This document shows, piece by piece, positions 2,837 through 48,838 of a stretch of DNA of 64,000 bases; positions within the stretch are counted from its first letter, which is position 1; each line of letters begins with the position of its first letter. Under the pieces are notes generated by a model. That model was not told the DNA's origin, did no database searches, and saw only the letters and a list, made by a program, of their open reading frames with translations. This stretch comes from Providencia rettgeri (GTDB lineage Bacteria; Pseudomonadota; Gammaproteobacteria; Enterobacterales; Enterobacteriaceae). The position numbers and the translations under genes were made by a program. Where the stretch lies: assembly GCF_041075285.1 (NCBI RefSeq), contig NZ_CP163512.1, positions 3,224,001-3,288,000 on the forward strand, written 5' to 3'.

Positions 2837-3036
2837 AAGGTTGAGTTCTTTTAAAAACTCAACCTTGAGGTTGTTGACAAAGCGGGAAAAAGCGTGGTTT
2901 TTCCCACTTTGTGTTATCAGGCGAAAATCAATATATTGATTTTCCTTGTTTATTTTCAAAATCTATCCAACCTGCCGCCAAACATGTTATGTTTGTCAGC
3001 AGTCTGAAGGTTGAGTTCTTTTAAAAACTCAACCTT
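2837..3036 (+). repeat. Terminator-flanked palindromic element, copy A
   Basis: A 140-bp core (2867-3006) lies between two perfect 30-bp copies of one hairpin (2837-2866 and 3007-3036; arms AAGGTTGAGTT and AACTCAACCTT). The core begins GAGGTTGTTGACAAAG and ends TTTGTCAGCAGTCTG, so its ends form imperfect inverted repeats (TTGTTGACAAA and TTTGTCAGCAG). Inside are three palindromes: a hairpin with CAAAG/CTTTG arms and loop GCGTGG, a 22-bp perfect palindrome centred on ATAT (arms GAAAATCAATA), and one with CAAACAT/ATGTTTG arms. The right hairpin copy is followed by CTTTTT and the left copy is preceded by an A-run, so together they terminate the convergent lysR and mdh genes. Copies B (8298-8473) and C (9255-9439) are in the opposite orientation. 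Confidence 0.85.
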
Positions 3037-8297: not shown

Positions 8298-8473
8298 AGG
8301 CGAGTTTTCCCGCCTCAACCTGCTGACAAACCGAATCGGTTTGGTAGCAGGTTGGCGAAGTTTTGAAACTAAACTGGGAAAATCAATTTATTGATTTTCG
8401 CCTGATAACACAAAGCAGGGAAAATCACGTTTTTACCCTGCTTTGTCAACAAGCTTAGGCGGGTTTTCCGCCT
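8298..8473 (-). repeat. Terminator-flanked palindromic element, copy B
   Basis: A 141-bp core (8316-8456) in the reverse orientation relative to copy A lies between two versions of one hairpin: AGGCGAGTTTTCCCGCCT at 8298-8315 and AGGCGGGTTTTCCGCCT at 8457-8473. The right version is followed by TTTTT and is the likely fbp terminator. Read on the minus strand the core has the same terminal TTGTTGACAAA and TTTGTCAGCAG and the same linker GTTATCAGGC as copies A and C. The first hairpin is perfectly paired here (CAAAGCAGGG with CCCTGCTTTG). The central palindrome has GAAAATCAAT arms, and the third has CAAACCG/CGGTTTG arms. Confidence 0.85.
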
Positions 8474-9254: not shown

Positions 9255-9439
9255 ACGCCGGTGATATTACCGGCGTCAGACTGCTGACAAACATAACCTG
9301 TTTGTCAGCAGGATGGAGCGGTTTTGAAAATAGACTGGGAAAATCAATATATTGATTTTCGCCTGATAACACAAAGTCGGAAAAACCACGCTTTTCACCT
9401 ACTTTGTCAACAACCTCACGCTGGCGATATCGCCAGCGT
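9255..9439 (-). repeat. Terminator-flanked palindromic element, copy C
   Basis: A 141-bp core (9277-9417) in the same orientation as copy B is flanked by two 22-bp hairpins, 9255-9276 and 9418-9439. These differ from each other at five positions. Four of those differences form two compensatory pairs, so both hairpins remain perfectly or almost perfectly paired. Core ends, linker GTTATCAGGC, loop GCGTGG and the GAAAATCAATA palindrome match copy A. It sits between the convergent genes ppa and ytfP. The left hairpin is preceded by an A-rich run, so it could terminate ytfP-direction transcription. Confidence 0.85.
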
Positions 9440-9474: not shown

Positions 9475-9822
9475 TTATTTTTCTTCATCACGTTTGAGCC
9501 AGTCGCCACTTTTAATTTGGCGCAGACCATCAACCGAATGCTTATATATATAAATCCAAGCGTTGCCATATGGCGTCGGAATTAATTCCCTCACATAGTC
9601 TTGAGAATTTTTCTTTAGCTCATCTAGCTCAGTCAAAATCGATGGATTGATGCGATATACCTCACATTCAATTGAGCCATCGCCTTTCACCACCGCTGGA
9701 TAAAATCCAAGATCATACAGTTCATAGCCTTCTAGCTTATGCTCGCCTAGCAATTGGGCATAAGTCATCCAGTGATGATTTCCTTGCTTTTGTCTTAAGC
9801 TGCCATAAACAATTACACGCAT
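9475..9822 (-). CDS. ytfP: Gamma-glutamylcyclotransferase-fold protein YtfP
   Basis: This 115-residue protein has the GGCT/AIG2 fold. The N-terminal VYGSLRQKQGNHHWM matches the conserved YGSL substrate loop, and the later PTPYGNAWIYIY segment is also typical. E. coli YtfP (113 residues) lies in the same place, after tamB. Its biochemical role is not firmly established; related domains act on gamma-glutamyl amines. It starts 3 bp after the tamB stop and is surely cotranscribed with tamA-tamB. A dyad with AATCC/GGATT arms (about 9447-9476) overlaps its 3' end and may terminate the operon. Confidence 0.9.
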   Translation of the reverse strand: MRVIVYGSLRQKQGNHHWMTYAQLLGEHKLEGYELYDLGFYPAVVKGDGSIECEVYRINPSILTELDELKKNSQDYVRELIPTPYGNAWIYIYKHSVDGLRQIKSGDWLKRDEEK

Positions 9823-31336: not shown

Positions 31337-31732
31337 TTACTCTTCAGAATCCCCAGTTTCTTCTACTTCTTCATCCTGATATTCATCAGAAAGGTCACGG
31401 CTACGACGTTCGTCTTTAGCTTTAACCATTGGAGAAGCTTCTGTTACTGCGTGTTTTAAGCGCATAACCATGCTGCGGATAACGGCATCGTTGAAGCGGA
31501 AGTTAGTTTCCAGCTCATCAATCGCTTCCTGTGGAGCTTCTACGTTCATAAGAACATAGTGAGCTTTGTGCAGTTTGTTGATTGGGTAAGCCAGTTGACG
31601 GCGGCCCCAGTCTTCCAGACGGTGAATCTGACCTTGTGCGTTAGTGATGACAGCACTGTAACGCTCGATCATGCCCGGAACCTGTTCGCTTTGGTCAGGA
31701 TGGACCATAAAAACGATTTCGTAATGACGCAT
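31337..31732 (-). CDS. rpsF: 30S ribosomal protein S6
   Basis: S6 starts [18 protein letters not shown] and gives 131 residues. A longer frame would add 21 residues that read through the leader, so I use 31732 with AAGGAG upstream. The C-terminal tail is acidic and ends DSEE, the usual target for RimK glutamylation in E. coli. A structured leader lies just upstream. Confidence 0.98.
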
Positions 31733-31759
31733 TAGTAGTTGCTCCTTACGGATTATTAG

Positions 31760-31792
31760 CCTCCTGTCTGGGTTAACCGCGGCCCGCGGAGG
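31760..31792 (-). promoter_or_regulatory. Candidate S6:S18 leader RNA motif
   Basis: In the rpsF 5' leader (minus strand) CCTCC and GGAGG arms enclose a GGG/CCC inner pair and a CCGCGG segment, 28-60 nt upstream of the rpsF start. Bacterial rpsF leaders often carry an S6:S18-binding autoregulatory hairpin with a conserved CCG. This hairpin is in the right place and contains CCG, but I cannot verify the full consensus. Confidence 0.5.
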
Positions 31793-31886
31793 CAAGGAAC
31801 TTGTTGAGTGCGGCTAAAAAATTGACGCGTAACTATACCCATCCCTGAGATAAAACTCAAGAGATGGATGCCTTTTTACACAAATA

Positions 31887-48528: not shown

Positions 48529-48604
<76 letters not shown>

Positions 48605-48646
48605 ATTTGGTGGGTACTGCTATTTAACTAAAACACTAAGGAAGTT

Positions 48647-48722
<76 letters not shown>

Positions 48723-48762
48723 ATCACGAAAATAGTGCTTTAGCTAAAACACCAAGAAAGTT

Positions 48763-48838
<76 letters not shown>

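What the first reader, a model, noticed from the sequence alone, without database searches (positions are those of the whole stretch)
2837..3036. A 140-bp element with inverted ends inserted between duplicated terminator hairpins
Three copies occur within 6.6 kb (cores 2867-3006, 8316-8456, 9277-9417; 140, 141 and 141 bp). All have the same ends (TTGTTGACAAA and TTTGTCAGCAG, imperfect terminal inverted repeats), three internal palindromes and the linker GTTATCAGGC. Every copy lies between two versions of a terminator-like hairpin. The hairpin differs between loci but matches within a locus. At copy A it is a perfect 30-bp direct repeat, with an A-run outside the left copy and a T-run outside the right, as if one bidirectional terminator had been duplicated on insertion. 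This suggests a MITE-like element that targets terminator stem-loops, or a modular RNA element built on them. I know of no described family with this structure.
Basis: partly seen in the sequence, partly recalled or inferred. Interest (0 to 1): 0.88.

Follow-up and report, generated by a model that had tools for sequence, protein, structure and literature searches.

The report
Tiny transposon that duplicates terminator hairpins
A 140-base mobile DNA element, present in 65 copies in one Providencia genome, inserts at the stem-loops that end transcription and leaves a copy of the whole stem-loop on each side; its ends match those of larger IS1182-type transposons that do the same, and those of a repeat known from Yersinia.

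Summary
The host genome (Providencia, species not fixed) holds 65 copies; 52 of 65 have a matching flanking repeat, against 1 of 1300 cross-locus pairs. In 45 end-anchored cases the repeat is 18-32 bp and centred within 1 bp on a stem-loop. Orthologous empty sites for window copies A, B and C carry one hairpin. So the hairpin is a target-site duplication whose extent follows the hairpin.

The element is a MITE. Its ends match the Yersinia element YPAL/RU-2 at 16/16 and 15/16 bases; the interiors are unlike. YPAL is reported to duplicate 3-26 bp at or beside dyad symmetries (PMC2229807).

The likely mobiliser is a clade of IS1182-family insertion sequences with like ends: 9 of 9 copies with both ends in view lie between palindromes, 8 of 9 between copies of the same one. 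IS1272, also IS1182 family, targets hairpins but deletes them; Wan et al. 2017 drew whole-hairpin duplication as a hypothesis. I propose joining at the 5' feet of an extruded cruciform. Known kind; strict hairpin duplication and the YPAL-IS1182 link were not met in what I could search.

The parts
2837..2866 (.). left copy of the duplicated hairpin (target-site duplication) of element A; A-run outside it
   Evidence: perfect 30-bp direct repeat with 3007-3036; single hairpin at the orthologous empty site
2867..3006 (+). MITE copy A, 140 bp, GAGGTTGTTGACAAAG...TTTGTCAGCAGTCTG, three internal palindromes
   Evidence: one of 65 genomic copies; DNA fold z -4.59
3007..3036 (.). right copy of the duplicated hairpin of element A; T-run outside it
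8298..8315 (.). hairpin on the low side of element B (AGGCGAGTTTTCCCGCCT)
   Evidence: sequence; single hairpin at the empty site in three Providencia genomes
8316..8456 (-). MITE copy B, 141 bp, between ORFs that I recognise as fbp and ppa (names recalled, from no call)
8457..8473 (.). hairpin on the high side of element B (AGGCGGGTTTTCCGCCT), T-run follows
9255..9276 (.). hairpin on the low side of element C (ACGCCGGTGATATTACCGGCGT)
   Evidence: differs from its partner, stem kept by paired changes (direct reading)
9277..9417 (-). MITE copy C, 141 bp, between ORFs that I recognise as ppa and ytfP (names recalled, from no call)
9418..9439 (.). hairpin on the high side of element C (ACGCTGGCGATATCGCCAGCGT)

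Best explanation
A non-autonomous miniature transposable element (MITE), moved in trans by a transposase of an IS1182-family clade with like ends, that inserts at palindromes, mostly intrinsic terminators. Shown by sequence: the element's ends, one-hairpin empty sites, whole-hairpin duplication in MITE and IS, like ends. Inferred: the target hairpin is extruded as a cruciform (or single-stranded hairpin); the two 3' ends of the element attack the two strands at the 5' feet of the stem-loop; the strands between are filled in, so each side receives one complete hairpin. This explains a duplication of variable length (18-32 bp) centred on the hairpin. At the time of insertion it leaves a hairpin beside each outer A/T-run, so termination should survive, which would make the insertion nearly neutral and permit high copy number.
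For: 65 copies, 0 inside an ORF of more than 150 codons; neighbours: 34 convergent, 29 tandem, 1 divergent, 1 undetermined by a crude ORF call. 45 anchored duplications centred on the stem-loop: 39 exact, 42 within 0.5, 45 within 1 bp; length follows hairpin span (Spearman 0.66, p 9e-7). 43 of 46 begin with A and 46 of 46 end with T, the 46 including one misregistered row, L037. One-hairpin empty sites for A, B, C. IS1182-family elements with the end motif: 9 of 9 with both ends in view lie between palindromes, 8 of 9 between copies of the same one (L296, L306, L308, L325, L326, L336, L338, L342; not L327). Transposase assignment: NF033551 and PF13751. The window's own genome has 162 bp of an IS left end (90% identical to the L306 IS) fused to a MITE right end. 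Whole copies in other Providencia (L112, L208, L215, L216, L218, L359), in Klebsiella (L196, L197, L198, L360) and a YPAL-like plasmid copy (L355, L356) also lie between like hairpins. Between diverged duplicate hairpins, 14 of 22 differing base pairs are broken only in the left copy and 1 only in the right, as expected if the copy next to the T-run is the working terminator. Precedent: IS1272 (IS1182 family) hits hairpins without sequence consensus, some confirmed terminators (passages of PMC4923244, PMC5678879).
Against: No intact IS1182 gene was found in the window's genome (one fragment, open frame 86 residues, one stop), so the mobiliser of its copies is inferred. The MITE's left end matches the IS's second end at only 11 of 16 bases. 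13 of 65 copies fail the repeat test, some through decay, some (L023, L072, L085, L091) with unlike or missing partners; L113 of another Providencia shows only a left hairpin, and the Proteus copy L358 a decayed right one. The left hairpin decays more, so lasting termination in both directions is not supported. Cruciform extrusion was not tested; survivor bias could favour symmetric duplications. 6 of 45 lack a clear T- or A-run.
Confidence: 0.8

Rival explanations
1. Ordinary DDE transposition with a loose, long stagger near terminators; selection keeps only insertions whose duplication happens to preserve the whole terminator, so hairpin duplication is a survivor effect and not structure recognition.
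For: Terminators are safe sites and only surviving insertions are seen. The right hairpin, by the T-run, is kept better than the left one (14 versus 1 of 22 differing pairs broken in one copy only), and 2 of 22 changed on both arms with pairing kept (L033, L036): selection on termination acts at these sites.
Against: 45 of 45 anchored duplications are centred within 1 bp of the hairpin, and length follows hairpin span; long variable staggers are unusual for DDE transposases (general knowledge). Two IS copies sit in A/T-rich palindromes with few G/C pairs (L338, L342).
Confidence: 0.12
2. A MITE of the same kind but moved by some other transposase; the IS1182 end match is convergent.
For: No intact IS1182 gene found in the genome with 65 copies; one MITE end matches the IS poorly (11/16).
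Against: 15/16 at the other end, a TGAC core at both ends, hairpins just inside the ends, the same whole-hairpin duplication, and a MITE/IS chimera in the genome itself. IS1202-family candidates had other ends and, where a boundary could be read, duplications of 5 or 15-20 bp that are not hairpins.
Confidence: 0.1
3. A structured RNA element (attenuator or stability element) built from terminator hairpins, kept for function, not a mobile element.
For: Strong palindromes; position behind gene ends.
Against: Empty orthologous sites, copy number from 0 to 65 in 24 genomes of the genus, locus-specific flanking duplications, no Rfam match at the element.
Confidence: 0.03

Closest known systems
YPAL / RU-2 of Yersinia (168 bp; De Gregorio 2006, known here only through PMC2229807 and PMC2759123)
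   Same: Termini identical at 16/16 and 15/16 bases, similar size, intergenic, duplications at or beside dyad symmetries
   Different: Interior not alike above shuffles (score 13; 339 of 500 shuffles as high). Reported duplication range 3-26 bp; here, in the 45 anchored cases, 18-32 bp centred on the whole hairpin. The original paper is not held.
IS1182-family insertion sequences with the CAGAYYnnTGAC ends (L296, L306, L308, L325, L326, L336, L338, L342)
   Same: End motif and whole-palindrome duplication
   Different: About 1.2-1.6 kb with a transposase gene, intact or broken; the MITE has none
IS1272 / TnSha1 of staphylococci (IS1182 family)
   Same: Target is a hairpin without sequence consensus, in part confirmed terminators (passages)
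   Different: Removes part or all of the hairpin and leaves no duplication; ours duplicates it. Wan et al. drew duplication as hypothetical pathway b.
ERIC and Correia/NEMIS MITEs
   Same: Small, structured, multi-copy
   Different: 5'-TA termini per PMC2229807 Table 1; ours have G...G ends and 18-32 bp duplications
IS1202 family
   Same: Unusually long duplications in one subgroup (PMC10132070)
   Different: Ends and duplications did not match in the loci read

Membership tests
MITE (non-autonomous miniature transposable element) | short, multi-copy, near-identical, too short for a transposase gene | tested here: met
   138-142 bp in 46 measured copies, 65 copies in the genome
MITE (non-autonomous miniature transposable element) | terminal inverted repeats | tested here: met
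   GAGGTTGTTGACAAA / CAGACTGCTGACAAA, imperfect, 11 of 15 by direct reading
MITE (non-autonomous miniature transposable element) | target-site duplication and empty site with one copy | tested here: met
MITE (non-autonomous miniature transposable element) | mobility | not testable with these tools
   only comparison of filled and empty sites
YPAL / RU-2 | terminal sequences | tested here: met
   16/16 and 15/16; best other placement 8/16 and 9/16
YPAL / RU-2 | interior sequence of the 168-bp repeat | tested here: not met
   local score not above shuffles; so a relative sharing ends, not a YPAL copy
YPAL / RU-2 | duplications at dyad-symmetric targets | tested here: met
IS1182-family derivative | ends shared with IS1182-family IS | tested here: inconclusive
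   15/16 at one end, 11/16 at the other
IS1182-family derivative | same duplication behaviour as the IS | tested here: met
   8 of 9 IS copies with both ends in view
IS1182-family derivative | trans-mobilisation by the IS1182 transposase | not testable with these tools
   needs experiment
IS1272-type stem-loop replacement | target hairpin deleted, no duplication | tested here: not met
   hairpin present on both sides
IS1202 family | TGT...ACA ends and duplication pattern | tested here: not met
ERIC | TA termini and TA duplication (as given in PMC2229807 and PMC2759123) | tested here: not met
Group IIC introns (recalled as terminator-targeting) | intron RNA fold and reverse transcriptase | not tested
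   only the window's Rfam scan, which gave no match at the element

The most novel reading that the evidence does not exclude
A whole clade of IS1182-family transposases, with its MITEs in Enterobacterales (the Providencia element, the Klebsiella relative, YPAL), transposes by reading DNA shape: the cruciform junction at the foot of a palindrome fixes both strand-transfer sites, so the target duplication is exactly one hairpin whatever its length, and the terminator survives. This would be the realised duplication pathway that Wan et al. drew as hypothetical, and would name the mobiliser of YPAL.
Probability: 0.6. Interest if true: 0.78.

Novelty: new variant of a known kind. Interest (0 to 1): 0.64.

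Why it matters
Most transposases leave a duplication of nearly fixed length, set by the geometry of the protein (general knowledge). Here the extent follows the target's own hairpin, which points to recognition of DNA structure and gives a simple bench test. It links an old enterobacterial repeat family (YPAL) to a candidate transposase family, explains how a parasite can sit in terminators without breaking them, and gives a matched contrast with IS1272, which deletes the same kind of target.

Tried and rejected
IS1202 family as mobiliser: suggested by its 16-28 bp duplications. NF033594 was searched in 247 genomes of the order and 19 loci, L219-L237, were scanned for TG...CA ends only. Where an IS boundary could be read (L220, L221, L223, L224, L232) the ends differ (such as TGTTAAACCCC) and the duplications, 5 or 15-20 bp, are not hairpins; L222 had ends but no duplication; many other rows were chance pairs. 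Rejected.

Autonomous copy by left end alone: 20 own-genome stretches around left ends and 20 more from G000 and relatives gave MITEs (whole, diverged, deleted or truncated) and a few single ends that may be chance, but no IS. The right-end motif led to the IS.

E. coli: the MITE has no match in the E. coli collection at E 1e-3. A YPAL-like copy is in 5 of 5,426 E. coli genomes and in 17 plasmid records; YPAL has no match in phages at E 0.01; the MITE was not searched in phages.

Clade test: tree of 30 IS1182 loci. Six of seven end-motif rows form one clade (95/77, just under the program's starred level). The seventh, L342, has an extreme branch; I think its longest ORF was not the transposase, and did not rebuild; L354 was not in the tree. 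L327 has unlike palindromes at its two ends. Of 31 IS1182 loci scanned for the motif, 8 have it, 6 with both ends. I cannot say how the other 23 duplicate targets: the repeat scan used narrow windows and missed L336, L338 and L342.

Dropped rows: the anchored set is 46 of 65; I dropped L037, whose element-end base differs (it has a perfect 28-bp repeat), leaving 45. The 19 skipped rows are listed; several (L002, L006, L075, L078, L080, L084, one of L089, window B and C) still show like hairpins by eye.

Literature: (MITE, Providencia, intergenic, terminator) gave 0 papers. In the listings (titles and abstract starts) I saw none on this element or on an IS1182-YPAL link. Only open papers held here were searched; De Gregorio 2006 and Siguier 2015 were not read. 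Seen as passages: PMC10132070 (plus sections 17 and 18), PMC10045372, PMC2267715, PMC2759123, PMC5193452, PMC2847712, PMC5678879, PMC4923244, PMC3196728; PMC2229807 part 1 of 3 and passages.

Full report
WHAT IS THERE. The window holds three copies of a 140-141 bp element: A 2867-3006 (+), B 8316-8456 (-), C 9277-9417 (-). Each lies between two stem-loops. At A these are a perfect 30-bp repeat; at B and C they are diverged. The window is from a Providencia: the protein of ORF 9475-9822 is 88-97% identical in the twelve Providencia loci returned; the species was not settled. The genome (G000, 4.35 Mb, one contig) has 65 copies at up to 3 mismatches of a 32-base core, against 0 for the reversed pattern; further diverged, deleted or truncated copies were met through the left end.

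IS IT MORE THAN CHANCE. I read all 65 with their flanks. A direct repeat of score 12 or more joins left and right flank in 52 of 65, against 1 of 1300 pairings of flanks from different loci. In 46 the repeat abuts both ends of the element. After dropping one misregistered row (L037), 45 remain: 18-32 bp, mean 22.5; the centre of the repeat equals the centre of the stem-loop in 39, within 0.5 bp in 42, within 1 bp in 45; length rises with the span of the G/C-closed hairpin (Pearson 0.58, Spearman 0.66). Of the 46, 43 begin with A and all end with T. The hairpin sequence differs from locus to locus.

EMPTY SITES. None of the 79 named orthologous loci fetched carries the core, by pattern (with positive controls) or by blastn. 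I printed the sites of five of them: for A and B the P. rettgeri YPR31, P. vermicola DSM 17385 and P. rettgeri RB151 loci (L117-L119) show one hairpin; for C the first two do, while the RB151 stretch shows none; L125 (site A) and L123 (site C) show one hairpin of other sequence. So the second hairpin arose with the insertion.

WHERE IT SITS. By crude ORF calling, 0 of 65 copies lie inside an ORF of more than 150 codons; 34 lie between convergent genes, 29 between tandem genes (19 with and 10 against the element's direction), 1 between divergent genes and 1 could not be called. Of the 45, a T-run only to the right was seen in 23, an A-run only to the left in 6, both in 10, neither in 6. Targets are thus mostly terminator-like, with a bias but no rule of orientation.

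RANGE. 21 of 24 genomes of the genus, the own one included, have the core, 0 to 65 copies each. Whole copies read in other Providencia (L112, L208, L215, L216, L218, L359) have like hairpins on both sides; L113 shows only the left one, and several others are truncated. At E 1e-4, with two candidates scored per genome, the whole element finds 5 of 295 genomes of the order, the own one included. Related elements in Klebsiella records (L196, L197, L198, L360) lie between like hairpins; a Proteus copy (L358) has a left hairpin and a decayed right one. The E. coli collection gave no match.

RELATION TO YPAL. The published 168-bp YPAL/RU-2 sequence (PMC2759123 Table 1b, passage) has the same ends as this element, 16/16 and 15/16, the next best placements being 8 and 9; the interiors are no more alike than shuffles. 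The review PMC2229807 (passage) states that YPAL duplications are 3-26 bp and that targets span or lie next to dyad symmetry. A YPAL-like plasmid copy (L355, L356) lies between AGGGGC-loop-GCCCCT hairpins with different loops.

THE MOBILISER. The exact right-end motif occurs in 9 of 394 genomes of the order, the own one included. At L261 it opens an element that encodes the end of a DDE transposase of the IS1182 family (PF13751 E 8.7e-28, NF033551 E 4.2e-50). A search of 32 genomes then gave two IS in a Providencia genome, L296 (1596 bp) and L306 (1576 bp), 95% identical to each other, each with an exact whole-hairpin duplication and each with an interrupted gene. That genome, G004, has no copy of the MITE core. 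A search of 394 genomes added intact relatives. Of 31 IS1182 loci scanned, 8 have the end motif. Over all loci with both ends in view (L296, L306, L308, L325, L326, L327, L336, L338, L342) 9 of 9 are bounded by palindromes and 8 of 9 by the same palindrome, L308 being a deleted copy; L327 is the exception. Six of seven end-motif transposases in the tree form one clade (95/77); I think that the seventh row is a wrong ORF. The window's own genome has only a decayed IS1182 piece, in part a chimera of IS left end and MITE right end.

HOW IT PROBABLY WORKS. Shown: filled against empty sites, whole-hairpin duplication, like ends. Inferred: the transposase recognises an extruded hairpin; the 3' ends join at the 5' feet on the two strands; gap repair copies the hairpin. 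Wan et al. (PMC5678879, passages) proposed this as pathway b of a figure when they described IS1272, which by their account takes another pathway and loses the hairpin; the TnSha1 study (PMC4923244, passages) reports that IS1272/TnSha1 targets are hairpins and that five were confirmed as terminators with RNA-seq data. Right after insertion each outer A/T-run keeps a hairpin beside it, so termination should persist; that is inference. Later the two copies fare differently: of 22 base pairs that differ between duplicates, 14 are broken only in the left copy, 1 only in the right, 2 are kept by changes on both arms (L033, L036), and 5 are unpaired in both. The right copy, by the T-run, seems to be the working terminator; I do not claim that both directions stay protected.

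WHAT SPEAKS AGAINST. The second MITE end fits the IS poorly (11/16). The active transposase of the copies in this genome was not found. Thirteen of 65 copies fail the repeat test. Survivor bias cannot be excluded without an assay.

VERDICT. Observation confirmed, interpretation supported, novelty reduced: a new YPAL-like MITE, tied to an IS1182 clade with structure-following target duplication. I found no print of that tie in the searches listed under Tried and rejected, which cover open papers only.

Noticed in passing
L302 positions 46-264 (G000, near 1,427,500): Chimeric remnant: hairpin, then 162 bp of an IS1182 left end (90% identical to the IS of L306), fused to a MITE right end, then a different hairpin.
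   Followed up: partly
45 anchored copies of G000: In diverged hairpin pairs the left copy is the one that decays: 14 of 22 differing base pairs broken only on the left, 1 only on the right.
   Followed up: partly
L207 (G002:C1, about 3,907,300): A MITE copy with an internal tandem expansion of a GTGTTATCAGGCAAAAA-like motif.
   Followed up: no
IS1182 loci of G244, G214, G312, G350, G368: The IS1182 matches fall in separate open frames of about 140-200 and 290-310 residues in several genomes of one family, which could be a frameshift, programmed or not, or shared decay.
   Followed up: no
G000:C1:3177476-3178081 and 3189149-3189490: Fragments of an ISNCY/IS1202-type transposase (NF033594) in the window's genome.
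   Followed up: no
window 48532-48838: Three tRNA genes in a row with the same Rfam score.
   Followed up: no
window 31730-31814: RpsF leader, an Rfam ribosomal-protein leader.
   Followed up: no
G233 contigs ending at the right-end motif (L255, L264, L270, L275, L281, L283): Six loci end within three bases of hairpin plus CAGACTGCTGACAAAC, as expected of a multi-copy long element; only small IS1182 fragments were found in that genome, so what the element encodes is open.
   Followed up: partly
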